Shown here piece after piece: positions 307 to 45,929 of a DNA stretch of 64,000 bases (its first letter is position 1; every line of letters starts with the position of its first letter). The stretch is from Leucocoprinus leucothites (taxonomy: Eukaryota; Basidiomycota; Agaricomycetes; Agaricales; Agaricaceae), in assembly GCA_013368445.1 (NCBI GenBank), contig JAACJO010000037.1, positions 124,001 through 188,000 on the forward strand. The letters are read 5' to 3'. Both the position numbers and the translations under genes were made by a program. Below the pieces are notes generated by a model. The model saw only the letters and a program-made list of their open reading frames with translations. It searched no databases and was not told the DNA's origin.

Positions 307-2600
307 ATGTCGACGCCAGGCCTCTGTCTCCCTTCGAACCCGGATACCTCTGGTATCGGCATACGAACTGCTATCTACGCTCAGAATCTACTTAGTTTTG
401 TACCAGCGCTCTTTGCGCTTCACGACGGGAAGGTCACCCCGTTGGAGCTCGAGGCGCTAGAGACTCAGTCGACGACCATTCTCATCACCGCTTTCGCCCT
501 TCTCTTGTCGGTCATCGTTCAGGCCCTCCAACACGGCTTGACCAACTACCACGCTGCCATCATTCTCAACCTCAGCTGGATGAACAACACGAACCTCTTC
601 ATTTACTTTTTCCTTTACGCCTATCATACATTCGAGCTGATGAAAGATGAAGAGATGAAGCAAGGCGGAGACCTACGAGCTTTCTGGGCTCTTCGGAGGA
701 AGAAGGCTATGAAGAATCCCGTATTACTCATTGGCTCCGCACACTTATCCCTCATGTCGGCAGTCGGAATATGGCTCTGGGCGAAACCCATCGCCTTCGG
801 GAATTCCCCGCCTTGTTCACTGTCAGCTTCGCTTTTCGTTGTGGGCCAACGAGCTTCGATTGGCTCTCAAGGGCTACGTGGATGGTCTCTTCTCATATAC
901 AGCCTGCTGCTTATTCCCGGTCTGAACCTAATTGCACCAATCGGGTTCTTCGCTGCACCTATTTGGGTTCTCGGTCGTTTTTTTTCTTTTTCTCTCAAAC
1001 GAGAATCCATGCTCAGGTTCGCGAGAGCTGGGTTAGCCGTGTTGGCCGTCATCAATGCTATCCTTCTGGTTGATACTGAAGTTGCGATTAGTAAGAATCA
1101 AGGTCTGACGGCAAAAGGTGATGGTGATTGGACATTCGGACAGACGCTAGCGCTGCTCCTACTCTTGATTCCCATTCGTGATATCGGAGAAGCACTCTCG
1201 GAACGGCGTGCAAAGACAGCTGGGGAAAGGCTTGAGACTGCGGCAAAGAGAGGAAATCTGGATATGGCTCGTGAGGCTATCAAGTCTGGAGCATCAAGAA
1301 GTGCAATAGGTAAATACATTATTAGTTATGAGAGAGGATATTGAAGTAATTGACTTAGAATCCTCGGTTGTGATTGCATTGAAGGAAGGTCACTTGGATT
1401 TGATAAAGGCTTTGATCGAAAATCCTAGTGGTGGAGAGCCTATATGTGAATAAGAGCTTTGTCTTATTCTTATGTGGCAGAACATTGATTCTTTTAATTC
1501 AGATCCCTCATTACAGGCTGCCCTAACTGCTTATTGTGAGATAGGCATGAGAAGTGAGCTGGTTAGTTCATCAACCCACTACATATATTTATAGTATCTA
1601 TTTAGATACACCAGGATGGAACGCACTTCACCATGCAGTTAAGCAGGGGCATACTAAGATGGTCAAACTCTTGGGTAAGCTTGAGGCAGGTCCCAATCTC
1701 CAAAGTAAGCCAGATGTATTGTCTACTCCTCCCAACATTGACAGTATCTGTTTAGATAAATCTGGGGAGACTGCTCTTCACCTTGCTGCTTGGAATGGGT
1801 GTACAGAGATTGTTGAAGTTCTGGCTGAGCTCAAGGCAGATCCCAACCTCCAAAGTAAGTCAGATGTATTGTCTACTCCTCCCAATATTGATAGTATCTG
1901 TTTAGACAAGGATGGGGAGACTGCTCTTCACCATGCTGTTAGTGGTAGGCATACAGAGATTGTCAAAGTCCTGGCTGAGCTCAAGGCAGATCCCAACCTC
2001 CAAAGTAAGTCAGATGTATTGTCTACTCCTCCCAACATTGACAGTATCTGTTTAGACAAGGATGGGGAGACTGCTCTTCAACATGCTGTTAGGGGTGGAT
2101 ATACAGGGATTGTCAAAGTCCTGGCTGAGCTCAAGGCAGATCCCAACCTCCTTGGTAAGTCAGATATATTGTCTACTCCTCCCAATATTGACAGTATCTG
2201 TTTAGATTCATATGGGTGGACTGCTCTTCACTATGCTGTTATAGGTAGGTATACAGAGATTGTCAAAGTCCTGGCTGAGCTCAAGGCAGATCCCAACCTC
2301 CTTGGTAAGTCAGATGTATTGTCTACTCCTCCCAATATTGACAGTATCTGTTTAGATTCATATGGGTGGACTGCTCTTCACCATGCTGCTAGGTATGGGT
2401 ATACAGAGATTGTCAAAGTCCTGGCTGAGCTCAAGGCAGATCCCAATCTCCTTGGTAAGTCAGATATATTGTCTACTCCTCTCAACATTGACAGTATCTG
2501 TTTAGACAAGGATAGAGAGACTGCTCTTCACCTTGCCACTAAAAACAGGCATACAGAGATTGCCAAATTTCTAACCAAGCTCAAGGTAAATCTAGAGTAG
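307..2600 (+). CDS. Multi-pass membrane protein with C-terminal ankyrin repeats
   Basis: The splice model has exons 307-1309, 1359-1445, 1503-1553, 1606-1704, 1756-1854, 1906-2004, 2056-2154, 2206-2304, 2356-2454 and 2506-2600. These total 1830 nt, or 609 residues plus TAG, and all nine introns are phase 1. Hydrophobic segments lie at about residues 20-38, 55-77, 82-108, 138-158, 190-224, 240-256 and 278-294. This N-terminal half resembles membrane proteins of unknown function that are common in Agaricomycetes. Residues from about 306 onward form ankyrin repeats, degenerate in exons 1-3 and canonical (G-x-TALHxA core) in exons 4-10. Ankyrin repeats normally bind proteins, so a membrane-anchored sensor or adaptor is plausible, but that is inference. 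Reading straight through the introns also stays open from 1554 to 2600, so an unspliced model would give a false separate 348-residue gene. No internal stop is seen, so the gene looks functional. Confidence 0.8.
1606..2600 (+). repeat. Tandem 150-bp exon-intron units, one ankyrin repeat each
   Basis: Seven ankyrin exons start at 1606, 1756, 1906, 2056, 2206, 2356 and 2506, a strict 150-bp period. Six exons are 99 nt (33 codons, exactly one ankyrin repeat) and the last is 95 nt including the stop. The six introns between them (1705-1755, 1855-1905, 2005-2055, 2155-2205, 2305-2355, 2455-2505) are each 51 nt, start GTAAG(T/C) and end GTTTAG. Each has a branch-like TTGAC, is divisible by three and lacks an in-frame stop. 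Splicing joins codons to give NLQ-NKDGETALH or NLL-DSYGWTALH, the expected ankyrin register. Apart from one CpG near 1621 the array has no CpG. Confidence 0.85.
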
Positions 2601-6665: not shown

Positions 6666-7906
6666 GTGGCACCTAGCTCCACTACTCAAAGATCTGACCT
6701 GATGAGCAACAGCAACTTGGAGACCAAGTTGTGCAAAATGGAGGAGGAGAATAAACAGAAAGTGGCCAAGGAGGAGGAATGGTGACAAAAGGAAGCAAAG
6801 GAGATAGAACTGACAAAACAAGAGGAAGAGGTGAGAAAGGAGGAGGAGTTGATGAGAAAGATGGCTGAGAAGAAGTGTAAAGAGGCAGAGGAAGCAGAGA
6901 GGAAGAAGAGAGAGACCAAGGAGGCTGTGTGGCTACAGAGGAAGAAAGAAGAGGCTGAGCTCACTAAGTGGATTTGGCTGGAGGCCAAGAAGAAGGAGAA
7001 GGAAGGGCAGAAAATAGAGAATGGGAAAGGAAAGAAAAGGGCAATGAAGGTAGGGGTTGAAATAGTGGAGAGCCCAGCTAAGAAGATGAAGATGACCAAA
7101 AAACACAAGTGGGAACTGGAGTTAGAAAGCCCCATATGAAGCTAATGAGTGGGCCAGCTGAAACAGTTATGACCCAACAGTGGAGTATAGCTGTGGGTCC
7201 ATCCAAGTACCACCTGACAGAGGTGGACAAACACACAGAAAATCTGGAATAGATGCCTGGCTTGGGACTTGCTGGCATTGATGGCTATGAGGCCACTCCC
7301 CTAAGAAAGCAGGGATAATGCAAAAGGTGGCAAGATCAAGAGGGATGGAGACAATGAGTGTGGGCAGTGTTTGTAGTTGGGAAAAAACTGTACTGAGCAA
7401 AGTGACATATGAGTAATTGCCAATATTTTGATATAGCTCAGCTAAATCAATAGGACAGTGGCAAATATATGTGTGAACCATGTCACACATCCAAGCAGAA
7501 GTGTGTGATGCCAATGAAGGCTGACAAGCAGCCTCATGAGCAGACCTATAAGCTTATCATCAAGCAAAGGAAGATCTATGCCATGCAATCAGCTATCTTG
7601 AAGGAGTTGAAGGATATTCAGGCTGAGCTGGGAACTTGGCACTTGGCAGTTGTGTCAAGTATCCAGTCCCAGACTAAGGTTGTGGATGGGTTGGCCAAAG
7701 ACTTTGAGGAATTCTATGACTGACTTGTCCTAGGTGACAAGGTCATGGATGATGAGGCACATAAGAAGGCCCAGGCAGAGTTGGATGCTTGTCTGGTCAT
7801 CCAAAAGAAAGCTGCATCAGAGAAGTCAGATGCCATGTCTGGAGATGAAGAGGGAGTTGGGGAAGAGGAGGTTGAGGGAGAGAAAGAGGGTGAGGATAGT
7901 AAGTAG
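6666..7906 (+). pseudogene. Antisense Zn2Cys6-like gene of old GyA, copy A
   Basis: This is homologous along its length to the GyA antisense gene (17354-16127). The start codon is GTG instead of ATG at 6666. Stops interrupt the Lys/Glu-rich coiled coil (for example TGA after the EEEW residues near 6782). The first cysteine cluster, CGQCL-stop-LGKNC, lies at about 7350-7390 and the second, CEPCHTSKQKC, at about 7474-7506. The intron donor GTGAGT is lost (ATGAGT at about 7409-7414), so splicing would fail. It ends at TAG 7904-7906. Nearly every CpG of the GyA version is TpG or CpA here. Confidence 0.8.
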
Positions 7907-9866: not shown

Positions 9867-10425
9867 TGTCACGAGCCGAACCTCAAGAACGGCTGACAGT
9901 TCGAACTTAGTATTATTTTCATGAACTCCTATCCGCTTTCGAATATCAGTTACTTCGGTTTATATTGGTCTTTTGCCTTTGGACTTATTCTGACACCTTC
10001 CATTTTATTAATTCATACCGCCTTGTCGAAATTTTCTGACAACCATTTAATAGTAAATTTTATATCTTCTAGCCTTGTAAAATTTGCGGACTCCACTTTG
10101 ATTATTTCTCCGTTTACTACTTTGCTTGTTTTCCTTATCCGATCCTATATTCAGCATCGTATATAAGTAGCACGACTTTGTACTTGGATTCCTTAGTCTG
10201 ATAATCAAATTAGCAATACGCTACTTTCCTCTGCTCTCTGTTCGTCCTCAGCTCTCTTATATTGTCTGAAATCCAGGTCAAGCATCAGTAGTCGGTACAA
10301 CACATAAGTTGAGGCCACGACCCGCTCCCGCGTCCAACGACCGGCTCCTGCCTTACCTCTGTCACACCTCTGTCCAACCGGTCCTTGACGTCGGCTCCCT
10401 ATCCATAGTGTTTGCGTGCTTAACA
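9867..10425 (+). repeat. GyA 5' LTR
   Basis: Starts TGTCACGAGCC and ends GCTTAACA. The same length as the 3' LTR. A TATATAAG box lies at 10160-10167. Confidence 0.92.
10160..10167 (+). promoter_or_regulatory. TATA box of the GyA 5' LTR
   Basis: TATATAAG lies 293 bp into the LTR and is repeated at the same offset in the 3' LTR (17777-17784). It likely drives the sense gag-pol transcript, placing the U3/R border about 30 bp downstream. Confidence 0.6.
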
Positions 10426-10472
10426 GTATTATCAGACTCAGATTCTACTGTCGCACTTGCACTTCTGTCATC

Positions 10473-11722
10473 ATGGTCAATACCCGCACTATCAAGGGCA
10501 AGACCTCCATCATTGCGCAACCAGAGCGGAAACGCTCTCACACTCCTCCTCCTGTCCCAAGCTCTTCTCATCTGACCGACGATAATTCTTGTATCAGTAT
10601 CCGCGCTCGTCGTTCACGTCGTCTTAATCCCAATCTCCCAGAAACTCCTCGATCTGCTAGTTCTCCTCCACCGCCTCCTCGTCGTTTTCGAAATATCCGT
10701 TCTCCCAGAACTCCTGCCCCACCTGGCAGTCTGCCATCTGACAGAGATCCATCCGATCCCTCAGAACCGGGTGACTCTGATGGTCCAGACTACGCCGATA
10801 ATCAATCTATGGGCCACGACGGCGATGATGAAGACGATAAACCCATCTATAACGGCTCCCCCGGTGGTCCTGGTGACCCCGACGACAATGATCCTGAAGA
10901 CCCTTCCCACTCCTCCGACGATGAGCCTCTTCCTCCTCGACGGGCACCTCATCCCCGAGCTCCCCAACAGAATCCCAACAATGATTGTCTAGCCGAGGCC
11001 TTGGGTAGGCTCGCTGACAATCTTGATCACCAAGCGGCTGCACAAGCCAACCAGACTCGCACCAATAAGGCTCGCCTCCCAGACACTTTTAGCGGCTCTG
11101 ACCCCGAAAAACTCAACACTTTCCTAATCCAATGCCGTCTATATTTCCGAGCCAACCCCACACAGTTCCAGCATGACAATCAGAAAGTTGATTTTGCTAT
11201 GACCTACCTCACCGGTGTCGCGCTTGACTGGTTCGAGGTTGGCCTCACTCAGGAAGAACAGGGTGTCTTCCATGACTGGTTCGATGATTGGAATGCATTT
11301 GTCCGTGAGCTCCATATGCATTTTGGCATCGCCAACCCGAAGGGAGAAGCAGCCGAGATGCTGGATACCCTTCGCATGAAACTGGGTGACAAGATTGCCA
11401 CCTACAACGTAGAGTTCCTTAAACATGCCTCTCAACTCGGTTGGAATGATGAGGTCCTCTGTCACCGTTACTACAAGGGACTTCTGAACCGCATCCAAGA
11501 CCCTCTCAGTACCTGCGAGCAGGGCAAACCTACTACCTTCGAAGAAATGCACCATTTGGCCATCATTTATGACGGACGCTACTGGGAGCACGACCGTGAA
11601 CGTGTTCGTGCCCGCGCTGCAGAGAAGGATGCTGCCGATTCTCTGAGTTGGAAGCAGCCGAACAAGCCCTCTAACTCCAATCCTTCCAATCCGAATCCGT
11701 CACGCAGCCAGTCTCAACCTGG

Positions 11723-11753
<31 letters not shown>

Positions 11754-12071
11754 CGAGGCAACAACAGTAACAGCAACAACAACAGCAACCGTAATCAGTC
11801 GCAGGCCCCGACTACCAAATCCAACACCCCCGCTCCATCCACATCCAGTACCCAACGTCCTACACCGAAATTCGACCTCTCTAGTAAACTCGGCCAAAAT
11901 GGCAAATTGACACCCGAAGAGCGAAAACAATGCCTCGACGAAGATCTCTGCCTATTCTGCAGCGGCAAAGGCCACAAGGTCGAGAATTGCCACAAGAAAC
12001 AAAATCGGGCCAAGATCCGCAAAGTCGAAGTGGCTCTGTCCAAGGACTCTGAAAAGAGTCCGGAAAAATAG
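10473..12071 (+). CDS. gag: GyA Gag
   Basis: Gag is the structural protein of the virus-like particle. From the ATG at 10473 (MVNTRTIKGK) it is 532 residues. The order is a basic Pro/Ser-rich N-terminus, an acidic Asp/Pro-rich linker, then a capsid-like segment with TFLIQCRLYF and AMTYLTGVALDWFE at about residues 200-250. A poly-Asn tract encoded by (AAC)n follows at about 11726-11790, then a zinc knuckle C-x2-C-x4-H-x4-C (CLFCSGKGHKVENC) near 11951-11992. No stop or frameshift is seen. It ends at TAG 12069-12071, and pol continues in the -1 frame. An upstream in-frame ATG at 10416 lies in the LTR and is unlikely to be used. Confidence 0.9.
12062..12071 (+). other. Candidate gag-pol -1 frameshift site
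   Basis: GGAAAAATAG places five A residues directly before the gag stop. Gag is read in the frame of 12063 and pol is open in the -1 frame across this point. It is not a perfect X-XXY-YYZ heptamer, so slippage is inferred from the frame relation only. Confidence 0.4.
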
Positions 12072-15000
12072 AGGGTGACCCTCAGGACTCTGCACAGACT
12101 GGGGGTCGCGTTGAGCTCATCTGTGCACCAGAGAGTCTCCTCCGCCTCAATGCATCCGCTCTTTCCGACCCAAATTCTCTTATCGCTTCCCTCACTTCTT
12201 CTCTCATTTGCTCATCTGATAATATCCAATGGATACCATTTTGTGCTCTCGTTGATTCCGGCTCCACTCATTGCTTCATAGATTCTGATTTCGTCCGCAC
12301 TCACTCTCTTCCGACTTCGCCCTTACCTCCTATCGAGCTTCGCCTATTTGATGGATCGTCGAATAGTTACATTACTGAACTTGTGAATCTGCCTGTTACA
12401 TTCTCTACTGGTGAATCTATGACTATTGACTTCTACATCACTCGGCTTGATTCTTCCTGCTCTGTGGTACTTGGACACAACTGGCTCACCCGCTACAATC
12501 CGTTGATTGACTGGGTTTCGAGCAGCATATCTTTCCGATCGCATTTGCAGGATAATCTTGCCCCTTCTGCCCACGTCGCATCCGCTCCCATAGCGGCTCC
12601 TACATTGTCACCCGCTCCTAGCCCGACGGCTGACACCCCTCCTCTGAATTCACCATCCTCTGGGACTTCTATGTCTACTCCTGGTATTGCAACAGCTCCA
12701 CGCATTTCAATCATCAATGCTGCTGCATACATTTGCGCTTTGCACCTTCCTGGTTCAGTAAACTTCCGCCTCAATCTCAGCTCGCCTTCCGCTTCCGCCA
12801 ATTCGGCTCGGGTTTCTGACGAGTCGATTGACCTTTCTAAAGTGCCCGACGAATATCATGAATTTGCCGATGTGTTCAGCAAAGCTCATGCTGACAGCCT
12901 TGCACCACATCGCCCTTACGATCTCAAAATCAATATTGAAGAGGGTGCTCAACCTCCCGTTGGCACTATCTATTCATTATCTCCATCCGAGCTTGAGTCG
13001 CTCCACAAATTTATTGATGAGCACGTGTCTATTGGATTTATCTGCCCCACTTCTTCGCCTCACAGCGCACCCGTTCTCTTCGTTCGGAAGAAAGACAGTT
13101 CATTATGACTTTGTGTCGATTTCCGCAGCCTTAATCGCATCACCAAGAAGGATCGCTACCTGCTCCCGCTCATCTCTGACCTACTCGACTCTCCTTGCAA
13201 AGCCCGCATCTACACCAAGATAGACCTTCGACACGCTTACCACCTCGTTCGGATCGCTGAAGGAGATGAATGGAAAACGGCTTTCAGGACCCGCTATGGA
13301 TCCTTTGAATGGCTGGTTATGCCTTTCGGACTCACCAACGCACCTGCAGCCTTCTAGCGGTTCATGAACAACATCTTTTCCGACCTCCTCAACGTCTGTG
13401 TCACAGTCTATCTCGATGACATCCTTATCTACTCTGATGACCTCGACACACACAAGAAACATGTTCGAGATGTCCTCAAGCGGCTCCGCAAGCATGGCCT
13501 ATATGCTAAAGCGGAAAAATGTGAGTTCCATTCCGATTCTGTTGAATACCTTGGGTATATCCTTTCACCAGCCGGTCTCAAAATGTCGGAAGACAAAATC
13601 AAAATCATCCAGGATTGGCCTGGACCGAAGAAAGTCAAAGACATCCAGTCTTTTCTAGGTTTCGCCAATTTCTATCGATGCTTCATTTACAACTATTCCA
13701 ATATCGTCATTCCGCTTACGCGCCTCACCCAAAAAGCATCTAAGTGGAACTTCGACGAACGGTGTCGCGAAGCCTTCAACTCCCTCAAAGAAGCGTTCAC
13801 TACTGCTCCCATCCTCACCCACTGGATACCTGATGCCCAGATCATCATTGAGACTGATGCTTCCGATTATGCACTTGCTGCCACCCTGTCCATTGTCGCG
13901 GACGACAACGAAGTCCACCCGATTGCGTTCCATTCCCGCACCTTCAACACGGCCGAGTTAAACTATGACACTCACGACAAAGAGCTCCTTGCTATCTTCG
14001 AGGCTTTCCGCACCTGGCGGCATTACCTTGAAGGAGCCCCACTTCCTATTGATGTTGTTACCGATCACAAGAACCTGGAATACTTCTGCACTACGAAGAT
14101 CCTAACTCGTCGACAGGCTCGTTGGTCTGAGTTCATATCACAGTTCAACCTCATCATCCGTTTCCAACCCGGCCGACTTGGAACCAAGCCTGACGCTCTC
14201 ACTAGACGATGGGACGTCTACCCTAAAGGGGGGAATAATGGCTACGCTTCGGTCAATCCTCATAATTTCCGACCTGTATTTTTGCATGAACAGTTATCGG
14301 CTTCAGTTCGAGCTACTTATTTTTCAACTCCTTCCCTTCGCACTGCCACCATACTAGATCTCGAGAAACTTCATTCTGATATCCTTACTTCACTCCCTCA
14401 AGACCTGATCGCATCCACTCACATCACTCATCCCGAAGGCTGCTGGTCAGTTGATTCCGCTGGTTTCCTTCGGCTCGACGACAGGATCAATGTACCTGAT
14501 GTCAACAATCTTCAACTCAGAGTACTACAATACAAACACGATCACGTCCTTTCTGGCCATTTCAGTCAGAACAAGACCCTCGAACTCATCCGACGCGAGT
14601 ACACCTGGCCTGATATCCGATCTCAGGTCAAGGCTTTCTGTAAATCCTGCGTTACCTGTATGCGATCCAAATCTCAGCGCCATAAGCCGTATGGTAACCT
14701 CAAGCAACTCCCCATTCCTGAACGCCTGTGGAATTCGATTTCAATGGACTTCATCGAGAAACTCCCTTCATCCTCTGGCTTTGACACTATCCTCATTATC
14801 ATCGACCGACTCTCAAAACAGGCTGTATTCATTCCGACTCACGACACTATCACTTCCGCAGAACTAGCACGGTTATTCGTCATTTACGTATTCTCTAAGC
14901 ACGGTGTTCCTTCTCATGTCACTTCCGATCATGGTTCAGAGTTCGTCTCACACTTCTTCCATTCCCTTGGCACGGCTCTGGACATGCGCCTTCACTTCAC

Positions 15001-15823
15001 ATCTGGTTATCATCCTGAAGGTGACGGACAAATGGAACGAACTAACCAAACGCTAGAGCAGTACCTCCGTGTTTACTGCAACTATCAGCAGGACAACTGG
15101 TCCGACCTCCTCCCACTTGCAGAATTCGCATACAACAACGCGCCCAGTGCTACCACCGGAATTTCACCCTTCTTTGCCAACAAGGGTTATCACCCTAACA
15201 TTACAGTCTATCCTGAACGCGATATCGCATCAGCTCATGCACGCAACTTCGCAGTTGACCTCGACGAACTACACACTACTCTCAAGGCTGAGATAGCCAC
15301 TGCTCAAGAATGCTACCAACAATCTGCTGATGCACGTCGGTTACCAGCCCCGGAGTTCAAAGTCGGCCAGAAAGTTTTTGTGAAAGCTCAATTCTTCCGC
15401 ACTACCTGTCCATCCAAAAAGCTTTCCGAAAAATATCTCGGTCCATATGAAATTATCACTCAACCTGGCTCTCACTCGTTCACCCTTCGCCTTCCAGATT
15501 CCATGCGTGCTGTTCATCCTGTCTTCCACATTTCCATGCTTGAACCAACCACACCCAATCCATTTTCCAATCGCACTGAACCGGCTCCCGCTGCCATTGT
15601 CATTGACGATGAACCAGAGTATGAGATCGCCCGCATCGTAGACTCGAAGATCGATCGACGTTGTGTATGCAAACTCCTTTACAAGGTCATCTGGCTGGGA
15701 TATGAAGATACTGATGAAGAATCTTCGTGGTTACCTGCTACCGAACTTACACATGCGACCGAACTTCTCTCTGATTTCCATTCTGCTTATCCTGACAAGC
15801 CTGGCCCACTTCCTTTATCCTAG
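12071..15823 (+). pseudogene. pol: GyA Pol with two nonsense codons
   Basis: Pol makes and integrates the DNA copy. It is one continuous frame except TGA at 13106-13108 (in SSL-stop-LCVDFR, where an Arg is usual) and TAG at 13355-13357 (in PAAF-stop-RFMN, where Gln is usual). Both are single C-to-T changes. Domains: protease with ALVDSGSTHCF at about 12244-12276; RT with VYLDDILIYS at about 13408-13437; RNase H from about 13840 (ETDASDYA); integrase HHCC zinc site at about 14535-14670; core residues in SMDFIEKL (14742), TSDHGSEF (14922) and GQMERTNQ (15027); C-terminal chromodomain at about 15615-15790. The chromodomain would steer integration to modified chromatin. Read-through or repair would be needed for function. 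Confidence 0.92.
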
Positions 15824-16126: not shown

Positions 16127-17354
16127 CTATTTACTACCATTCTCACCCTCATCCTCTCCCTCATCTTCCTCTCCTCCTGCCTCTCCCTCATCCCCAGACC
16201 CAGCATCCGACGTCTCCGGCACGATTTTCTTCTTAGTGGACAATTTGGCATCCAACTCCGCCTGTGCCTTTTCATGCGCCTCATCGTCCATCACCTTGCC
16301 ATCAAGGACAAGCCGGTCGTAGAACTCCTCAAAGTCCTTAGCCAGCCCATCCACGACCTTGGTCTGGGACCAGATACTCGACACCATTGCCAAGTGCCGA
16401 GTTCCCAACTCGGCCCGGATCCCCTTCAGCTCCTTGAGAATGGCCGATTGGACGGTGCGGGTCTTCCTTTGCTCGACGATGAGCTTGTACGTTTGCTCAT
16501 GAGGCTGTTTGTCAGCCTCTGTCGGAACCGCACACTTCTGTTTTGAAGTGTGGCACAGCTCGCACATATACTTGCCACTGTGAATATTGTCATTTGATCA
16601 GCCGACCCAAGGAATCGGAAGTTACTCACGCGTCACTTTGCTCGGTGCAGTTCTTGCCCAGACGCAAGCACCGCCCGCACTCGTTGTTTCTGCCCATCTT
16701 TATCTTCCCTCCCTTCACATCATAGTTTCCGCGTTTTTGGAGGGCGGTGGTCTCGTCTCTTCCATCTCCGGCCAAACCTGAGCCGGGTGTCCACAACAGA
16801 TCGTCGTCTTGATCATCCAGCTCCATAAGCTGATACTTGGAGGGACCAGCGGCCACACTCCGTTGAGTCAACCTGGCCGTCTCAGCCGGCCCACTCGTCG
16901 GTTTCGCACGAGGTTTTCGAACCCCGTTTCCCGCCTTCGCATTCTCCGTCGTTTTCTTCTTCTTCACCAGACTCTCCACTATCTCCACTTCCACCTCCAT
17001 TGCTGTTCTCTTCCCTTTCCCCTTCTCTTTCTCCTATCTTTCCTTTTCCTTCTTCTCGGCCTCCAGCCGGATCCATTCCGCCAGTTCAGCCTCTTCCTTC
17101 TCCTTTTGTAACTGCTCTGCTTCCTCGGCCTCCTTCCTTTTCTTCTCTGCCATTTTCCTCCGCAATTCTTCTTTTCTCTTCCGTCGTTCCTCCTCCTCAT
17201 GTTTCTTTTTCTCGGCTTCCTCAGCCTCTTGCTTCTTCCGTTCTTCTTCTTCGGCTGCCTTCCGATCATCCTCTTCTTCCAGTTTGCGCAACTCATTCTC
17301 CAAGTCGCTATCACTCGACGGGTCAGATCTGTGGGTCACAGAGTTGGGCGTCAT
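16127..17354 (-). pseudogene. Antisense spliced gene of GyA with Zn2Cys6-like cluster
   Basis: Exon 1 is 17354-16630, exon 2 is 16577-16127, and the intron 16629-16578 is 52 nt, GTGAGT to CACAG, phase 2. Spliced length is 391 residues. Order: a short N-terminus (MTPNSVTHRSDPSS), a long Lys/Glu-rich coiled coil (about residues 15-125), a basic linker, then CGRCLRLGKNC plus CELCHTSKQKC. Joining the exons creates C-x2-C-x6-C-x10-C-x2-C-x6-C, the spacing of a GAL4-type binuclear zinc cluster with a long loop. A conserved helical region (residues about 265-335) and an acidic Ser/Glu tail follow. One in-frame TAG (17034-17036) lies in the coiled coil, probably CAG to TAG. The function is unknown; DNA binding is inferred from the cysteine pattern. 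Older copies lie at 6666-7906 and 32343-33459. Confidence 0.75.
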
Positions 17355-17407
17355 GGTAGCGTTAAGGGATTAAGTTGTGAGAAAGCTTAATTTTTTCCTC
17401 AGAGCGG

Positions 17408-17430
17408 AATTTATACGGAGTTTGAATTGG
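17408..17430 (-). promoter_or_regulatory. CCAAT and TATA boxes of the GyA antisense gene
   Basis: On the minus strand CCAAT (17430-17426) is followed after 10 bp by TATAAATT (17415-17408), and the ATG (17354) lies about 53 bp further on. The pair is conserved in both old copies. It lies outside the LTR, between the antisense gene and the polypurine tract, so it looks like a dedicated internal promoter. Confidence 0.65.
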
Positions 17431-17470
17431 TTCCCACGATCAAGTCACGTGGCTTCGAGGGCTCAGCCCT

Positions 17471-17483
17471 AAGGGGGGAATAC
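17471..17483 (+). other. GyA polypurine tract
   Basis: AAGGGGGGAATAC immediately precedes the 3' LTR at 17484, the expected place for plus-strand priming. No convincing tRNA primer site was recognised after 10425. Confidence 0.7.
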
Positions 17484-18042
17484 TGTCACGAGCCAAACCT
17501 CAAGAATGGCTGACAGTTCGAACTTAGTATTATTTTCATGAACTCCTATCCACTTTCGAATATCAGTTACTTCGGTTTGTATCAGTCTTTTGCCTTTGGA
17601 CTTATTCTGACACCTTCCATTTTATTAATTCATACCGCCTTGTCGAAATTTTCTGACAACCATTTAATAGTAAATTTTATATCTTCTAGCCTTGTAAAAT
17701 TTGCGGACTCCACTTTGATTATTTCTCCGTTTACTACTTTGCTTGTTTTCCTTATCCGATCCTATATTCAGCATCGTATATAAGTAGCACGACTTTGTAC
17801 TTGGATTCCTTAGTCTGATAATCAAATTAGCAATACGCTACTTTCCTCTGCTCTCTGTTCGTCCTCAGCTCTCTTATATTGTCTGAAATCCGGGTCAAGT
17901 GTCAGTAGTCAGCACAACACATAAGTTGAGGCCACGACCCGCTCCTGCGTCCAACGACCGGCTCCTGCCTTACCTCTGTCACACCTCTGTCCAACCGGTC
18001 CTTGACGTCGGCTCCCTATCCGTAGCGTTTGCGCGCTTAACA
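17484..18042 (+). repeat. GyA 3' LTR
   Basis: 559 bp, TGTCACGAGCC to CTTAACA, TATATAAG at 17777-17784. Differences from the 5' LTR are mainly CG versus TG or CA. Confidence 0.92.
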
Positions 18043-18043
18043 G

Positions 18044-18710
18044 TGTCACAACATGTGATTGGGTTATATAAGACAGCAGCTAACTGGTCTTTAACCTACT
18101 TCAATTAATGAGCTTGAGTATTCTCAAAAGCCCAGTAAGAGAAGGCCAAGATGACTTAAGGTAAGTCAAAGGTAGCACAAGGTTCAAGACAGCAACAATA
18201 ATACAAGTGAATTCAAGGCAAGGTGAGTAAACATAAGTATTCCAGGAAACAAAGGAAAGATTAAACTTGCATTTAATCTTCCTAATACAAAGTCCTTAAA
18301 TACTGACTAGATGAAATGATATCAAACTATGAAACTACAACTACAAGTCCAATATCACAATCATGATTCTGATAAATACTAATCTGTCTGCTGATATAAC
18401 AGCTATCATAGTTAGATATCTGATTGTTCTTATCCAAAACACAATGTCCATAAAATGATCATTGTCTGTTCATCTATCTTATTAGTCCATTCTGAATCAA
18501 AACATGAAACCATTCCTCCTAATCCTCCTAATAACATCTGTCCAATTATACTCATCCCAATCAACATCAACTCACTCTTCTTCTATATTGAACTTCCTAA
18601 TGTACTCTTCCCAATCAAGTAAGGCTGCTTCAGACTGGGTGGCTGTGTTAATGTCTAAGATGATCAAGTCACAGTGGGTGTCAATCAGGTTGATGTTTAT
18701 AACAGATGTA
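18044..18710 (-). mobile_element. GyC element 3' fragment, reversed
   Basis: It starts TGTCACAACATGTG, the reverse complement of the end of the GyC LTR at about 43148. The LTR runs to about 18483. Then the minus strand encodes the same terminal peptide (…EEYIRKFNIEEE…, about 18710-18500) found at 42457-42696. It lies between two parts of the old GyA pol, with about 280 bp of that pol missing. Confidence 0.75.
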
Positions 18711-22230: not shown

Positions 22231-23823
22231 CAGTGGCTCAAAAAACTGTCCCAATGTTTTCGCATTTTGGACATATTTGCTAATACCAGGGCAGATATAT
22301 GGCCTAGCATCCTGAAAATATTCACACAGGTACCTTGACATATTGGGAGCATATATTCCCATGATCACATGACCTTGTCCATCAATGAATTAATAATGAA
22401 TTATCGAAAATATCTACTCATTGGGACAGTTTTTTGACCCTCTGTTATCTACCTACTCAATACTTTGTATGACCTCCTCTTGCCCTGATAACTGCCTCAA
22501 TCCTTCTGGGCATGGTTTCTATCAGCCTTTGGCACCTTTCTGCTGGAATCTTATTCCACTCCTCTACTAGCCTCTCCCACAATTCAAATACTCCCTTGGG
22601 TGGTCTTTCATATGCCTTCAGCTGGTCCTTCAGGTAGGTCCAGAGGTGTTCAATGGGATTTAGGTCAGGGGATTGTGCAGGCCATGGTAGAACTTGAATG
22701 TTGTTGTCCACAAACCATTGTTGTCCCAGTTTTGAGGTGTGTTTTGGGTCATTATCCTGCTGGAATATCCTCTCCTCCTCCTCCATCTCCAACTTTTCAA
22801 AGCTTTCCACCACCCCATTGTCCAAAATCTCGCAGTATTGCACTGCATCCATATTCCCTTGAACCTCTATCAGCTTTCCTACCCCATTCCACCCCATACA
22901 CCCCCACACCATCATGTTACCACCTCCTCCATGTTTGACAGTAGGGAGAGTGGTCCTATCTGACAGTGGTTCCCCCCTCTCCTTCCAGGTATACACCTTT
23001 CCATCTGACCCAATCCTGTTGATCTTTGTTTCATCTGTCCACAACACCCTCTTCCAGTCCTCCACTGTCCAATTCCTATGTTCATGTGCAAAGTCAAGGC
23101 GTTCCTCACGATGTCGCTTTTTGAGTAGAGGTCGTTTGATCTTGGTTACAGAGCAAAATCCATTATCCTGAAGGGTATTTCTGACAGTTTGGGGTGTGAC
23201 AGGGTCAGACAGAGTAGAGTTAATGAAAGTTGTAGCCTGGACAGCATTGTCTAGCTTTCCAGAGGTTATTTGGTGAATTATTGCTTTTTTATCACGAGGA
23301 GAAAGCTTGGAAGGACGTCCTCCCTTGTTGTTTTCCTTGTCCCCATCAACTTCTTTCTTGATCCTCCCAACAGTAGACTTTCCTAGACCAGTTTTATGTT
23401 CAATCTGGCGCAAGGAATAGCCATCTTTGAGAAGAGAAGTGACTTGGGAGTATTGGGTAGAGGAGATAGCTTTCATGATGTAGTGGCAGGAAGAAAGACA
23501 GTTGTAGCCATCTCAACATGTCAACCAAGGTCACATGATCTTGTTTATTACTCCCACGCCTGCCCTGATGCTCCCCTGGCATGTTACAAGGTAGATACTG
23601 GGAGGCTGACAGGGGGTCAAAAAACTGTCCCAATGAGTAGATATTTTCGATAATTCATTATTAATTCATTGATGGACAAGGTCATGTGATCATGGGAATA
23701 TATGCGCCCAATATGTCAAGGTACCTGTGTGAATATTTTCAGGATGCTAGGCCATATATCTGCCCTGGTATTAGCAAATATGTCCAAAATGCGAAAACAT
23801 TGGGACAGTTTTTTGAGCCACTG
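22231..23823 (-). mobile_element. Tc1/mariner element, copy 2 (intact)
   Basis: 1593 bp with terminal inverted repeats of about 210 bp, flanked by TA at 22229-22230 and 23824-23825. It encodes an uninterrupted transposase. Its length equals that of copy 3. The right flank is the ankyrin intron, while the left flank is unrelated to it. Confidence 0.95.
22457..23476 (-). CDS. Tc1-type DD34E transposase (copy 2)
   Basis: This 339-residue enzyme excises and integrates the element at TA sites. The N-terminal helix-turn-helix (about residues 1-50, with YSLRQIEHKTGLGKSTVGRI) and a second DNA-binding segment to about residue 115 precede the catalytic domain. Catalytic residues sit in LWTDETKINR, QQDNDPKHTS and SPDLNPIEHLW. 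Counting from the Asp of QDND to the final Glu gives 34 intervening residues (DD34E, Tc1 proper). No stop or gap. The length is typical of Tc1 transposases. It differs from copy 3 at only about one residue (SPRDKK versus SPCDKK), so it may be active or only recently silenced. Confidence 0.95.
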   Translation of the reverse strand: MKAISSTQYSQVTSLLKDGYSLRQIEHKTGLGKSTVGRIKKEVDGDKENNKGGRPSKLSPRDKKAIIHQITSGKLDNAVQATTFINSTLSDPVTPQTVRNTLQDNGFCSVTKIKRPLLKKRHREERLDFAHEHRNWTVEDWKRVLWTDETKINRIGSDGKVYTWKERGEPLSDRTTLPTVKHGGGGNMMVWGCMGWNGVGKLIEVQGNMDAVQYCEILDNGVVESFEKLEMEEEERIFQQDNDPKHTSKLGQQWFVDNNIQVLPWPAQSPDLNPIEHLWTYLKDQLKAYERPPKGVFELWERLVEEWNKIPAERCQRLIETMPRRIEAVIRARGGHTKY

Positions 23824-24107
23824 TATTGTCTACTGCTCCCAACATTGACAGTATCTGTTTAGACAAGGATGGGTGGACTGCTCTTCACCTTGCTGCTAGG
23901 AATGGGCATACAGAGATTGTCAAAGTCCTGGCTGAGCTCAAGGCAGATCTTAATCTCCAGGGTAAGTCAGATGTATTGTCTACTGCTCCCAACATTGACA
24001 GTATCTGTTTAGATAAATATGGAGAGACTGCTCTTCACCTTGCTACTAAAAACATACATGCAGAGATTGCCAAATTTCTAACCAAGCTCAAGGTAAATCT
24101 AGAGTAG
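23824..24107 (+). pseudogene. Ankyrin gene paralogue, 3' end only
   Basis: It retains the last part of a 51-nt intron (to AG 23861-23862), a 99-nt ankyrin exon (23863-23961), a 51-nt intron (23962-24012, GTAAGT to GTTTAG) and the 95-nt last exon (24013-24107). Lengths are identical to the intact gene. The 5' part, including the membrane domain, is replaced by Tc1 copy 2 and unrelated DNA. No stop occurs in the remaining exons, but there is no start. Confidence 0.85.
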
Positions 24108-25279
24108 GAAATAGTTGAAAGTGTTGTAAGGTACATAATGTTTTAGCATATGTACCTGACAGATTCTCATGAGCTGGAAATATTAACAGTAGAATCCAAC
24201 TATACAATTTAGGAGACATTTGTATAAAATTTTCTTCTTTATGCACAGGAAATTTATAGTACTCTACTATCCACTCCAGTACAATTGTCAGAATATGCCA
24301 AATCTCACTAAGTTGCATTGTCAGACATTATAATAGGCACCAAAACTATGTACAACAGAAATGGGCAATTATAATATAATACAATAAAATAATTAGTTTA
24401 TTATATCACTGTAACAACAGCTAGGCTCCTTATAATGACACCAGGTGACTGATGTATCATGTGATAGCATAGAACTAATGTTATAATTATGCCATAATAC
24501 CACTGACTTGGTGTTTGGAGATCTATAGTAGTAATAATTAAAGTAAGAGTATTGGAATATTGTTTATTATAATGGAAAGTACAGCTGTTTTGATATTCCA
24601 GGACAGATCAATACAATTGCCAATAATAAGTAGAGAAGCCTCAAGATCCAAGATAGGGTTATGATTGTATCTTGAGCTATGACTTTGCTGTAGTTGCTGC
24701 TGTTTGCAAATTGGGTGATATTTCTTGGGACTTAGATCAAGAAGTTGATATGGTATAATATCAGAAGGGCACATAGTATATGTGGGTACAGAAGCAGCAC
24801 TAGTATCTGTATAACTGACATATGGGCACTAAATAGAGTACTCAGGAAGGAGAGGGGAGGTGGGACTTGGGAAAGGAGATTGTTGAAGTAAAGCAAGGAG
24901 TTGGAAAACATGGATGGTACCTGAAGGTGGCAATGCTGCTAAATTAGAAAGTCAATTATAATGGATGCTCTAGGCTATATACATAGATGACACCTGTATA
25001 CTTTGTTATAAGAGTGGTTATATGGTATTAAACTGTTAAATAGCTTACAATTGTTGTATTAGTAGAGAAATCAAAACAACTAAGGTAGAGCTCACATGAG
25101 ATAGTGGTGATCACATATAGTGACATTACTATAACATCAGGCATGCCACACAAAGGTAATACTTAGATTAAATGCATTCTATGTATTGTCAATCAAAGCT
25201 CAACTCTGAGTATTTCATTACTAAATATTCATCTATGCAAGGCCAGGACCCTCAAGAATCCTTGGGAATAGTCATAGGA
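24108..25279. other. Copy B of the AT-rich tail, with Tc1 empty site
   Basis: Matches 2601-3471 joined directly to about 5051-5380. The join at about 24976-24982 (GGCTATATACATAGATG) is the pre-insertion site of Tc1 copy 1. The minus strand at about 24930-24560 holds the second copy of the unrecognised decayed ORF, with its own TAG but without the one in copy A. Confidence 0.75.
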
Positions 25280-32342: not shown

Positions 32343-33459
32343 ATGGCACCTAGCTCCACTACTCAAAGATCTGACCTGATGAGCAACAGCAACTTGGAGA
32401 CCAAGTTGTGCAAAATGGAGGAGGAGAATAAATAGAAAGTGGCCAAGGAGGAGGAATGGTGACAAAAGGAAGCAAAGGAGATAGAACTGACAAGACAAGA
32501 GGAAGAGGTGAGGAAGGAGGAGTTGATGAGGAAGATGGCTGAGAAGAAGTGTAAAGAGGCAGAGGAAGCAGAGAGGAAGAAGAGAGAGACCAAGGAGGCT
32601 GTGTGGCTACAGAGGGAGAAAGAAGAGGCTGAGCTCACTGAGTGGATTTGGCTAGAGGTCAAGAAGAAGGAGAAGGAAGGGCAGAAAATAGAGAATGGGA
32701 AAGGAAAGAAAAGGGCAATGAAGGTAGAGGTTGAAATAGTGGAGAGCCCAGCTTAGAAGATGAAGATGACCAAAAATACAGAAGTGGGAACTGGGACTAG
32801 GAAGCCCCTTATGAATCCAATGAGTGGGCCAGCTGAAACAGTTATGACCCAACAGTGGAGTATAGCTGTGGGTCCATCCAAGTACCACCTGACAGAGGTG
32901 GACAAGCACACAGACAATCTGGAATAGATGCCTGGCTTGGGACTTGCTGTCATTGATGGCTATGAGGCCACTGCCCTAAGAAAGCAGGGACAATGCCAAA
33001 GGTGGCAAGATCAAGAGGGGTGGAGACAATGAGTGTGGGCAGTGTTTGTAGTTGGGAAAAAACTGCACTGAGCAAAGTGACATATGAGTAATTGCCAATA
33101 TTTTGATATGGCTCAGCTAAATCAATAGGACAGTGGCAAATATATGTGTGAACCATGTCACACATCCAAGCAGAAGTGTGTGATGCCAATGAAGGCTGAC
33201 AAGCAGCCTCATGAGCAGACCTATGAGCTTATCATCAAGCAAAGGAAGATCCATGCCATGCAATCAGCTATCTTGAAGGAGTTGAAGGGTATTCAGGCTG
33301 AGCTGGGAACTTGGCACTTGGCAGTTGTGTCAAGTATCCAGTCCCAGACTAAGGTTGTGGATGGGTTGGCCAAAGACTTTGAGGAATTCTATGACTGACT
33401 TGTCCTAGGTGATAAGGTCATAGATGATGAGGCACATAAGAAGGCCCAGGCAGAGTTGG
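32343..33459 (+). pseudogene. Antisense Zn2Cys6-like gene of old GyA, copy B (truncated)
   Basis: ATG is kept at 32343-32345. Stops interrupt the coiled coil (for example TAG after EEENK at about 32433, and TAG after VESPA at about 32754). The second cluster CEPCHTSKQKC is at about 33149-33181. The first cluster carries a stop. The gene is cut by the GyB LTR at 33460, just before its acidic tail. Confidence 0.8.
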
Positions 33460-34099
33460 TGTTATGATGATGCTGGCCTGGTCCTAAGCTGGCACAATAA
33501 GTATCAAGTAGATCTTATCAAAGGGGACTCCTTCTCGGTAAGTGACAAAGTCGTTTACTAAGTCAGAGTTATAATACGGCAATTATAATAATAAGACTTT
33601 GGTAATTGAGATCTTAATAACTTAAGTTTCAATTCGACTTTGTATAGATAAAGGCTGGTATTGAGTCTCCACCTAACCAAGTAGAAACAATGTTTCTCCT
33701 TGGTAGATGTTGATGACTTATATACAATACAAGTCTGTATCTATTATTAACTAGGGCTAAGGGCTTCTAATGAAGAAGAGAAGCGTACAGCTTCCTTAAC
33801 GCTAATTAAACTATATAAGACACAATCTGTCAAAGAAGCTTTAAAAGTTCTTCTTTGATCATCTGATCGATCATAAGGTAAGTCCAAATGTAGTGCAGCT
33901 ATATTTAATAATCACATGTCATCAAAGGGTAAACAAAACCAAACAAGTCATAACTAGACAAAGTAAACAAGTCAAAACAAACTAAAGAAAACAATAACAA
34001 ATAGAAAGAAAACATAATTGCAATATTACTTAAGTAAAGCTAATATCGACTTCGTATTGTAGATGGAACAAATGCTAGATATAATCAATATACATAACA
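33460..34099 (-). repeat. GyB 3' LTR
   Basis: 640 bp, TGTTATGATGATGC to ATACATAACA. Near-identical to 39705-40347. Confidence 0.92.
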
Positions 34100-34292
34100 T
34101 TATCCCTTTCCTAGCTAAGATGTTCACATCTTAGTAACTATTTAAGTCACTAAGGTAAATTACCTTCACCATCTATGTTGAAGTTGGCCTTATCATCATA
34201 ATGAGATTCATAATTGCCATCTTTGTATGGGGGTGTAAGGGGGTGGTCTCCCTCATAGATGCGAGAAGTTCGACTATGATGGGGACGTCTGT

Positions 34293-36938
34293 TCAGACTG
34301 CATCCTCAATGGTTTGGATGGGAGGAATGGACTGAGGTCTGGACACAACCATACTGTCTTCCTCATGGTGTGGGTTTATGGCCTCATCGCAGTGTAAAAG
34401 GAGGGTTGTAGGTGGGGCCGAGAGTGGTGGTGTTAACAGCCGTGGATGTTGGATTATGTCGTTCAGATTGAAGTCTGTCGATATTGGTGATGGGGGTGCC
34501 ATGATTGCCGGTTGGTACACTGGACTGGTGGGGCTGTACTCTGTCAGGTGGTAGATCTGTAATAAGACCATGGATATTTGGAAAAAGGGCCTTGTGGAAG
34601 AAGGGCCTTTAATTGGTCGCATCAGTGGTTTAACCAGATGATGGTTGATTTTGTACTGTTGACAAATAGGGCATCCTTTCACATAGTTCTGAATATATGT
34701 GTTCATTCCAGGCCAGTAAACTAATTTAGATAGTTTACAGAACATTTCGGCTGTTCCTGGGTATCCTGATGTCTCATGATCATGTACACATTGTAGAAGT
34801 CTTCTTTTTAGTTTGGCATCTTCAGGTATCACATGTCTTCCCTGATATTTATAAATGCCATCATCTTCTGTAAATCTTCCAGATGGGGCGATCTTTGTTT
34901 GTTTATTTTTAATTTCTTTTTTAATTTCCTCAGAAAGGAAGTTAATGAATTTTTCTGATGGTATCACAACTAGATCTTCATTATCTTTTCCATCTGGGAC
35001 TAGGTCTGGTCTTCTACTCAATGCATCAGCAAGAGTATTTTTGTTACCAGCCAAGTGCTTTATGGAGTAATAGAATTGTGTCATGTACAGCATCTATCTG
35101 GCTTGTCTTTGATTTAATTGTTGTGGTTCTCACCATCTGGTGAGATTCTCATGATCAGACCATATGATGATAGGGTGTGCTGATCCTTCGAGGTAGTGTT
35201 GCCATTCCTTTAGTGCTCTAATAATAGCAAGGAATTCTTGGTCGGACACATGATAGTTTCGTTCCACAGGGTTAAGGGTTTGTGAATAATAAGCCACAGG
35301 GTGTTTATCTCCATTTGAATCTCTTTGGAGTAGTACTGCACTGGTAGCAAATGCTGATGCATCACATTCGATTTCGAATGGCTTTGATTCATCAACTATT
35401 TGTAGTATAGGTTGCTTAAGGAATTGTTCCTTTAGCTTCTCAAAGCTTGTCTGTGCTTCTGGGTTCCATTCGAATTTCGTTGTTTTACAAAGTAATGTAT
35501 TAAGTGGTTGTGCGATAGCTGAGAAGTTGTGGATGAATTTGCAATAGAAGTTGCAGAAACCAATAAACTGTCTGATATTTCAGACAGACTTGGGTACAGG
35601 CCAATCCTGTATTCCCTTAAGTTTAACTGGATCCATCTCAATAGAGTCAGGAGTTATGATAACTCCGAGATACTCTAGACGTTGCTTCTTGAATTCGCAT
35701 TTCTCAGTCTTTAAATACAACTCATTCTGTTGTAGAATCTTTAAGACTTGTTTAGTAAGTCTTTTGAGTTGTTCCTTTGTTTTCGCATGGATAAGGATGT
35801 CATCCATATAGATAATAACTCCGCCTTTCTCAGTGAGGTCTTTAAAGATGTGATCCATCATGGATTGGAAGGTAGCGGGTGAATTCATCATTCCAAAGAA
35901 CATGACCGTGGGTTTGTATAACCCATTATGAGTGCGGAATGCCACTTTCCATTCATGTCCTTCATGGATTCGGACATTATTGTATCCTAGTCAGACATCT
36001 AACTTGGTAAACCAATTAGATCCTTTGAGTTTATCCATGATTTGTGATATGCTTGGTATTGGGTGAGCATTCTTTATCATATTCTTGTTAAGGAATTGAT
36101 AGTCTTGACATGGGCATAAGTCTCCTCCTTTCTTTCCTACAAAGAAGAAAGAAGAGGCCATCAGTGACTTGGATTTCTGAATATATTCCTTTCGTAGGTT
36201 TTCAGAAATAAACTTGTCAAGTTCAGTTCTCTCCTGGGGTGTCAGGTGATAAACTGGCATGCATTTGGGTTCAAATTCGGGTATAGTCTCGATTTTATGA
36301 TCCCAGGGACATCTGGGTGGTAATTTCTCAGATTCATCTTTGTTGAAGACTTTGAGAAACTGATGAAATTTCTTTGGTATGGCTTTCACAGGGTTTGATT
36401 CCTGTTTTGGTTTAGTTGCCAAATTGTGAAGTTGTTGTGATGTGTTAGATTTCACATTGATTTCATAATACAACTGATTGATGGAATCAGTTTTCACTTT
36501 GGTTAATTTGATTGTGTGAGAGTTTTCATCTTGCCAACATAATGACAGTTTCTGCCAATCAACGTCAGGGTTGAATCTCTTTAACCATGTGATTCCTAAG
36601 AATAGTTGGTTTGATCCAAGTTTGACTATTCTTGGAGAGATCGTCATAATCTTGTTGTTCACTTCTATTTTTAATTTTGTATAGTGAGTACAACTTCCTG
36701 ATATGTTTTGTATTCCATCAGCGTTACAGATTTTGATTGCCTTCTTCATTTTGAATTTTGGCAAGTTGTAGGTATTGACTAGTTGTGGGTCGATAAATTC
36801 TCCACTAGCTCCTGAGTCAAGTAGTGCTTGTAGGTTGTGTTTTGCTTTGGTTGTATGGAGCAATATTGGTACATGTACTGTTAATCCTTTGTTTGATTGA
36901 AGATCAATGATGTCTATCTGATCTTCATGAGTACTCAA
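34293..36938 (-). pseudogene. pol: GyB pol (protease, RT, RNase H, partial integrase)
   Basis: Protease LLDSGASGEF lies at about 36825-36796 and RT from about 36300. The frame is broken by TGA at 35993-35991 (LDV-stop-LGYNN, where Arg is usual), and RT continues with YMDDILIHA at about 35815-35790. RNase H has IECDASAFA at about 35375. The integrase zinc site (HDHETSGYPG, CPICQQYK) is intact at about 34780-34660. Just after the first core segment (an LITDLPP-like stretch near 34560 in a shifted frame) the sequence jumps to an unrelated Pro/Ser-rich tail, so the catalytic core with the remaining acidic residues is missing. It ends at 34293. It cannot integrate by itself. Confidence 0.88.
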
Positions 36939-36939
36939 A

Positions 36940-45299: not shown

Positions 45300-45508
45300 T
45301 GACTAGTAGGTTACAGTCATCAATATCTCAAACCTGTCTTGAAGCTCAACATCATCAGGAGAGTCCAAACCCTGAAGATCATCAGTATCATCTGGTCCAT
45401 CCATGCAAGAAGTGTCATCATCAGCCACATCATTGTTGTCTTTGCATTGACAGCCATGGGAAGCTGAGCCATCCACATTCATCAGGGTTTTGTCTTCAGG
45501 GATACCTG
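45300..45508 (-). pseudogene. KDZ transposase C-terminal tail, left of the Copia insertion
   Basis: The minus strand reads IPEDKT, then Asp-rich DDTDDLQGLDSPDDVEL, and continues the KDZ reading frame that stops at 50815 on the other side of the Copia element. Removing Copia and one ACCTG restores continuity (LDPG then IPEDKT). Confidence 0.75.
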
Positions 45509-45868: not shown

Positions 45869-45929
45869 GGTTATGGGCCCCACCCCATTGCATTGCTAAA
45901 GAAAGAAATTATCTATATTGAAGTTTACG

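What the first reader, a model, noticed from the sequence alone, without database searches (positions are those of the whole stretch)
16127..17354. Antisense, intron-containing Zn2Cys6-like gene carried inside a Gypsy retrotransposon
Seen: between pol and the 3' LTR of GyA, the opposite strand carries a 391-codon gene with a clean 52-nt intron (GTGAGT to CACAG). Splicing joins two half-sites into C-x2-C-x6-C-x10-C-x2-C-x6-C. Known: GAL4-type fungal regulators use C-x2-C-x6-C-x(5-12)-C-x2-C-x6-C. An intron can survive retrotransposition only in a gene antisense to the genomic RNA, which fits. The same gene is found in two older copies of the element (6666-7906, 32343-33459), so it is an inherited part of the family. 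Inference: an element-encoded regulator acting on its own LTR or on host genes.
Basis: partly seen in the sequence, partly recalled or inferred. Interest (0 to 1): 0.87.

Follow-up and report, generated by a model that had tools for sequence, protein, structure and literature searches.

The report
Antisense regulator-like gene in fungal retrotransposon
A family of jumping genes in a mushroom genome carries, on its opposite strand, a spliced gene for a probable DNA-binding protein that natural selection has kept working in several copies, so these elements may carry their own regulator.

Summary
The antisense gene is real and belongs to the element family, but the copy in this window is broken: coordinates, intron and cysteine spacing are as described, yet codon 107 is TAG (17034-17036). 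The host assembly matches Leucocoprinus leucothites. I aligned 40 distinct copies; all keep the 52-nt intron slot and 12 are open from ATG to stop. Between open copies dN/dS is 0.07-0.29 in 50 of 51 listed pairs, and the spliced antisense frame is the lowest of six frames in 10 of 10 tests. A diverged subfamily (45-47% protein identity) keeps the intron's place, phase and length, the six cysteines and a TATA-bearing leader. Three NCBI protein models equal the spliced products letter for letter. The element is a chromodomain Ty3/Gypsy. Antisense genes after pol are already known (Grande, Retand, Boty brtn). New here: an intron-split Zn2Cys6-like motif with half-sites apparently in swapped order, measured selection, and a gene block 3-9 times more diverged at silent sites than pol in five of six pairs, suggesting cassette exchange. 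A regulator role is the best guess but untested: no RNA or binding data, and Pfam's Zn_clus cut-off is not met.

The parts
16630..17354 (-). Exon 1 of the antisense gene (ATG at 17354); charged helical region, then first cysteine half-site
   Evidence: dN/dS 0.06-0.17 in five pairs of sister copies
16578..16629 (-). 52-nt intron, phase 2, GTGAGT...CACAG, between the two half-sites
   Evidence: slot of 52 nt and CACAG in 41 of 41 rows, GTGAGT in 30, ATGAGT in 11
16127..16577 (-). Exon 2: second half-site, helical region, acidic tail, stop TAG
   Evidence: dN/dS 0.07-0.20 in five pairs
16647..16679 (-). First half-site CGRCLRLGKNC
   Evidence: aligned to the second half of Pfam Zn_clus, 16.7-17.4 bits against a cut-off of 21, in the intact relatives
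16532..16564 (-). Second half-site CELCHTSKQKC
   Evidence: resembles the first half of host Zn2Cys6 domains
17034..17036 (-). In-frame TAG at codon 107: this copy is broken
17355..17483 (-). Leader between ATG and 3' LTR with TATAAA at 17415-17410; candidate antisense promoter, and polypurine tract next to the LTR
   Evidence: conserved sequence only, no RNA data
9867..10427 (+). 5' LTR of the element
   Evidence: 97.3% identical to the 3' LTR; matched span, the last bases may lie outside the LTR
17484..18044 (+). 3' LTR of the element
10389..12071 (+). gag frame (Ty3 capsid-like), stop-to-stop span
12053..13108 (+). protease and start of pol
13358..15823 (+). pol: part of reverse transcriptase, RNase H, integrase, chromodomain; frame interrupted between 13108 and 13358 in this copy
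   Evidence: one 1256-1292-codon frame in L014, L015, L016, L018, L020
6666..7906 (+). Older, decayed copy of the antisense gene
32343..33459 (+). Older, decayed copy of the antisense gene

Best explanation
This is an accessory gene of a chromodomain Ty3/Gypsy element family, placed antisense between pol and the 3' LTR. Shown: it codes for protein in the spliced antisense frame, is under purifying selection, and is shared by subfamilies. [quoted passage not shown] Inferred with less certainty: the protein (long charged helix, six-cysteine Zn2Cys6-like core, second helix, acidic tail) acts in the nucleus, binds DNA as a dimer and tunes transcription of its own element, as has been proposed for plant Grande and Retand antisense proteins and is known (recalled) for HTLV-1 HBZ. 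My odds: real, selected, spliced gene 0.95; metal-binding cysteine cluster 0.65; nuclear nucleic-acid-binding protein 0.6; regulator of its own element 0.4. The confidence below is for the whole chain up to 'DNA-binding regulator', whatever its target.
For: dN/dS 0.07-0.29 in 50 of 51 listed pairs of open copies, 0.46 in one; 15 pairs with dS of 0.02 or less were not listed. Predicted frame lowest of six in 10 of 10 pair-by-exon tests; position 3 most variable in 40 of 40 rows without filter for intactness. Intron slot of 52 nt in 41 of 41 rows and, at the same place and phase, in 4 of 4 L055-type genes. Six cysteines kept in that type; residues 206-282 are 48-53 of 77 identical against roughly 35-50% elsewhere. 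TATAAA 60-61 nt before ATG in 20 of 21 rows with flank and at -59 in 4 of 4 L055-type rows. NCBI proteins P0001, P0002 and P0004 equal the spliced products of L009, L018 and L055/L060; UniRef's name for P0004 begins 'Zn(2)-C6 fungal-type domai'. In the model a short helix follows each CxxC pair and a long helix follows the core.
Against: No RNA, localisation or binding data. Pfam Zn_clus below cut-off in every scan (11.3-17.4 bits against 21) and no match for full-length P0004. No Fungal_trans or other regulator domain at E up to 1. The core is modelled with low confidence, pLDDT about 46-53; the only Foldseek match up to E 10 is a Zn2Cys6 protein (PUT3) but at E 3.5, which is not significant. 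The L061 type has no TATA at that place (0 of 4 rows) and no selection could be shown in it. The LTR and leader were not shown to hold a binding site.
Confidence: 0.5

Rival explanations
1. A nuclear accessory protein that is not a transcription factor: it helps the pre-integration complex enter the nucleus or tethers it to chromatin; the cysteine core binds nucleic acid or protein and the long helix is a scaffold.
For: Long helix 15-115 at high confidence, Pfam cut-off not met, no regulator domain beyond the cysteine core. The review PMC7264820 considers such roles for plant antisense ORFs.
Against: The six-cysteine spacing is that of fungal DNA-binding clusters and the integrase already carries a chromodomain.
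Confidence: 0.3
2. The antisense RNA, not the protein, is the functional product: it pairs with the genomic RNA and feeds RNA interference or hinders expression.
For: Antisense position; the review PMC7264820 names this option. It could act in addition to the protein.
Against: Amino-acid-level selection in both exons and frame-specific signal. An RNA-only role does not need a frame, splice sites or cysteines.
Confidence: 0.03
3. A host Zn2Cys6-type gene captured recently by one element.
For: Host genomes of this kind hold many Zn2Cys6 genes: 24 matches in this genome individually reach Pfam's score cut-off of 21 bits.
Against: Found across subfamilies with pol 85-100% identical; the three protein searches returned no host gene, only products of element copies and one metagenome protein equal to the L061 type. 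An old capture is not excluded.
Confidence: 0.05
4. A chance open frame in biased sequence.
For: The region is rich in charged codons, and other frames hold stop-free runs up to 186 codons on the sense strand.
Against: Selection and frame controls, conserved intron, no sense frame open across the region in five copies.
Confidence: 0.01

Closest known systems
brtn of Boty-like Ty3/Gypsy elements in Botrytis cinerea (Zhao et al. 2011; not held, seen only as cited in PMC7264820, PMC8365987, PMC4227169)
   Same: Fungal Ty3/Gypsy element with chromodomain and an extra antisense gene between pol and 3' LTR
   Different: I could not compare sequences; whether brtn has an intron or a cysteine cluster is not known to me
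gene23 of maize Grande
   Same: Antisense between pol and 3' LTR, kept across copies, own promoter upstream of the gene (reported there; here only a conserved TATA leader)
   Different: Plant element; no zinc-cluster motif reported in the review parts I read
TRP28 antisense ORFs of plant Retand elements (PMC11963269, passages)
   Same: Antisense after pol, predicted DNA-binding, proposed regulator
   Different: Other domain (PF04195); the word 'intron' does not occur in that text
HTLV-1 HBZ (recalled, and named in PMC11963269 and PMC7264820)
   Same: Antisense regulator gene near the 3' LTR of a retroelement
   Different: Its antisense promoter lies inside the 3' LTR (PMC7264820); bZIP-type protein (recalled); not related by anything tested here
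GAL4-type Zn2Cys6 regulators (PF00172)
   Same: Six cysteines in two C-x2-C-x6-C half-sites with a linker of 10, helix after each CxxC in the model
   Different: Half-sites apparently in swapped order, Pfam cut-off not met, no Fungal_trans domain found

Membership tests
GAL4-type Zn2Cys6 (PF00172) | Cysteine spacing C-x2-C-x6-C-x(5-12)-C-x2-C-x6-C | tested here: met
   30 of 41 aligned rows keep the full pattern, the rest are decayed
GAL4-type Zn2Cys6 (PF00172) | Pfam Zn_clus curated score (21 bits) | tested here: not met
   11.3, 13.0, 13.1, 15.3, 16.7 and 17.4 bits for full proteins and pieces; none for full-length P0004
GAL4-type Zn2Cys6 (PF00172) | Order of half-sites: basic CxxCxxxKxKC first | tested here: not met
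   Scores trained on host half-sites call first half B-like and second A-like in 3 of 3 subfamilies (leave-one-out 10 of 10 and 13 of 14; partial sites added by hand). With the smaller set the P0004 first half was called A-like (+6.0), against this reading
GAL4-type Zn2Cys6 (PF00172) | Two zinc ions bound, DNA binding | not testable with these tools
   needs purified protein
Antisense additional ORF between pol and 3' LTR (aORF-3R) | Place and orientation | tested here: met
Antisense additional ORF between pol and 3' LTR (aORF-3R) | Kept in many copies of the family | tested here: met
   40 distinct copies aligned; diverged subfamilies
Antisense additional ORF between pol and 3' LTR (aORF-3R) | Own antisense promoter and transcript | tested here: inconclusive
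   Conserved TATA and leader; no RNA data
Chromodomain Ty3/Gypsy (chromovirus) | gag, protease, RT, RNase H, integrase, chromodomain in that order, LTRs | tested here: met
   (RT split by the break in this copy; rve 34.1 bits against 32.6, Chromo 26.6 against 25.1)
Chromodomain Ty3/Gypsy (chromovirus) | Target-site duplication | tested here: inconclusive
   Window copy: flanks do not match; matching 5-base flanks in 8 of the 9 other copies printed (L016's right end was mis-set)

The most novel reading that the evidence does not exclude
The antisense gene is an exchangeable control cassette that works like the immunity region of temperate phages: elements with nearly the same pol and LTR carry different versions of the protein, each kept by strong selection, and swap them by recombination so that one lineage escapes the control, or the host silencing, that acts on another. 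The protein would use a permuted zinc-cluster DNA-binding domain.
Probability: 0.12. Interest if true: 0.87.

Novelty: new variant of a known kind. Interest (0 to 1): 0.62.

Why it matters
Antisense genes after pol have been noted in plant elements and in Boty without a known function. Here is a fungal family with many copies, several young and open, a recognisable cysteine core, a candidate promoter and measured selection, so the question whether such elements carry their own nuclear regulator becomes directly testable. If the half-site order is truly swapped, it also widens what counts as a Zn2Cys6-like domain, and the mosaic block would be an example of control modules being exchanged between retrotransposons.

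Tried and rejected
Chance frame: rejected by frame-specific dN/dS. RNA-only function: not compatible with protein-level selection. Recent host capture: three protein searches found only products of element copies and one equal metagenome protein, but these searches need shared 5-residue words, and only 7984 candidates were scored, so distant relatives in other fungi may be missed.

Structure: one AlphaFold2 model from 3 sequences, mean pLDDT 63.3. Foldseek gave one match up to E 10, not significant. The VIA second look compared only 3 chains and returned a long-helix match of no weight; a Zn2Cys6 fold is neither shown nor excluded. Proteins of solved structures by sequence: best E 0.39, coiled-coil type. 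Phage records: none.

L061-type gene: differences between its copies show no clear position-3 excess (my start offset there may be off by a base, and the trial splices were out of frame for that reason), so neither selection nor a splice model was established.

'The gene simply mutates faster' was considered for the diverged block and set aside, because the pair WIN-L009 has dS 0.085 in the gene against 0.118 in pol. No formal recombination test was run.

Literature: nine library searches returned and a tenth; none listed a spliced antisense zinc-cluster gene in a retrotransposon, but most subscription papers are not held, and Zhao 2011 and Gomez-Orte 2013 were seen only as cited.

Full report
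What is in the sequence. On the minus strand 17354-16630 and 16577-16127 join across a 52-nt intron (GTGAGT...CACAG) into a 391-codon frame with C-x2-C-x6-C-x10-C-x2-C-x6-C. In this copy codon 107 is TAG (17034-17036), so the copy is broken. Its pol frame is interrupted between 13108 and 13358, whereas L014, L015, L016, L018 and L020 have one frame of 1256-1292 codons. The LTR match is 9867-10427 and 17484-18044, 97.3%. Pfam finds Ty3-type capsid, protease, RT, RNase H, integrase and chromodomain.

The host. The window is G000:C37:124001-188000 of a 47.0-Mb assembly. Proteins P0001, P0002 and P0004 bear Leucocoprinus leucothites names, and their longest contigs, 816867, 3177395 and 695087 bases, have the lengths of C18, C3 and C20 here. 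The host is therefore very probably that mushroom (Agaricaceae).

Copies. The DNA search gave 42 matches, two of them small fragments next to larger ones (its counts are lower bounds). I aligned 41 rows including the window; L036 and one of the two L024 rows are the same place, so 40 copies are distinct. All 41 rows have a 52-nt intron slot and CACAG; the donor is GTGAGT in 30 and ATGAGT in 11; 30 keep the six-cysteine pattern. The ATGAGT donors fit CpG loss: CpG counts are 103-111 in L009 and in the six near-identical copies L013-L018 but under 20 in many old copies. No row lacks the intron. Twelve rows are open from ATG to stop over more than 370 codons; one of these (L033) has lost its donor. 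Sister copies are true insertions: 8 of 9 printed besides the window have matching 5-base flanks, and young ones have LTRs 99.1-100% alike (L013-L017, L020). The window copy has no matching flanks.

Selection. Nei-Gojobori dN/dS among open copies is 0.07-0.29 in 50 of 51 listed pairs and 0.46 in L033-L044; 15 pairs among six near-identical copies were not listed. The 12 copies stand for about seven lineages, so the pairs are not independent. The window copy gives 0.35 with L009, and L055-type pairs 0.35-0.42, where much of the difference is younger decay. For five pairs and two exons the predicted frame gave 0.06-0.20, the facing frame that shares third positions 0.13-0.28, the other four 0.81-6.13; the predicted frame was lowest in 10 of 10. 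Without filter for intactness, differences from L009 sum to 1606, 1440 and 3999 at codon positions 1, 2 and 3, position 3 being largest in 40 of 40 rows. Pol gives 0.11-0.27 in seven pairs; an eighth (L014-L012) aligned unrelated frames and was dropped. No sense-strand frame is open across the region in five copies.

Depth. The L055 type (L054, L055, L060, L064) has pol 85-89% identical to the window's but a product 45-47% identical to the GyA type. It keeps the intron's place, phase 2 and 52-nt length with other intron letters, and the six cysteines. A third type (L061, L062, L063, L065, L066; pol 70-78%) has at the same place an antisense frame with CSQCVAGQREC-x8-CTYCAQAKKGC in L061 and close forms in the others, not split at that point. 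Its common descent with the GyA gene rests on place and motif alone, and selection on it was not shown. One protein equal to 285 residues of L061's frame comes from a JGI metagenome.

Open pol and open gene. In one search, 12 of 55 pol matches have an open frame of 1256 codons or more and no stop in the match. Of these I read eight of the GyA or L055 type: seven have an open antisense gene (L014, L015, L016, L018, L020, L055, L060), and L030 has two stops in exon 1. Two more (L061, L062) are of the third type, and two were not read.

Promoter. Of 21 GyA-type rows with enough flank, 20 have TATAAA 60-61 nt before ATG; 4 of 4 L055-type rows have it at -59; 0 of 4 L061-type rows. The leader is 88.7% identical over 106 columns between the window and L060 or L064, while the LTRs align only in pieces of 75-82% plus one 21-nt match at 90%. 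The stretch next to the LTR must serve the polypurine tract, so only the TATA part speaks for a promoter (inference).

The protein. The model has a helix 15-115 at high confidence, short helices 226-231 and 247-252 at the two CxxC pairs at low confidence, and a helix 261-330. The single Foldseek match up to E 10 is PUT3, a Zn2Cys6 protein, at E 3.5: a hint only. Pfam aligns the first half-site with the second half of Zn_clus, below cut-off; the second half-sites alone matched nothing in that family. Host-trained half-site scores call the order swapped in 3 of 3 subfamilies, but the smaller training set called P0004's first half the other way. By these tests I do not file it as a GAL4-type member, though it may work like one.

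Mosaic block. L014 and L020 differ by 0.5-6% along gag and pol, by 7-24% over the gene, and by 2.5-5% after it. Silent divergence, gene against pol: L009-L014 0.42 and 0.049, L014-L020 0.69 and 0.093, L009-L020 0.53 and 0.098, WIN-L020 0.529 and 0.099, WIN-L014 0.438 and 0.151, WIN-L009 0.085 and 0.118 (pol over 411-1255 codons). So the gene is not simply fast; blocks seem to have been exchanged between lineages (inference, no formal test).

What is known. The review PMC7264820 (parts 1 and 2 of 3 read; [quoted passage not shown] Passages of PMC11963269 report predicted DNA binding of Retand TRP28 proteins. Passages of PMC8365987 and PMC4227169 mention brtn. The kind is thus known; an intron-split zinc-cluster-like version was not listed in my ten searches.

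Verdict. A real, selected, spliced antisense gene of the element: very likely. A DNA-binding regulator: about even. Acting on its own element: plausible and untested.

Noticed in passing
window 1551-2600; also 23822-24121: A frame of ankyrin repeats in 150-nt direct repeats, with a related unit 21 kb away.
   Followed up: partly
window 22457-23512 (-) and 56691-57746 (+): Two near-identical open 351-codon transposase frames with DDE_3 and HTH_Tnp_Tc3_2 domains, flanked by further matching repeats.
   Followed up: partly
window 45508-50753: Copia-type element (integrase core, RVT_2) with LTR-like ends 98% alike.
   Followed up: partly
window 57839-60406: Two open frames next to the transposase; the second has a Pif1 2B helicase domain, possibly a Helitron remnant (the Helitron idea is a guess).
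   Followed up: no
window 33772-40319: Another Gypsy-like element, minus strand, LTR-like ends 98% alike; it lies directly beside the older antisense-gene copy at 32343-33459.
   Followed up: no
P0003, JGI metagenome contig of 3929 bases: A metagenome protein 100% identical to the first 285 residues of the L061-type antisense frame, so the same or a very near fungus was sampled there.
   Followed up: no
L061, L062, L063, L065, L066: Third type of antisense gene with an extra cysteine in the linker and a stop after codon 285 that an intron might remove; not resolved.
   Followed up: partly
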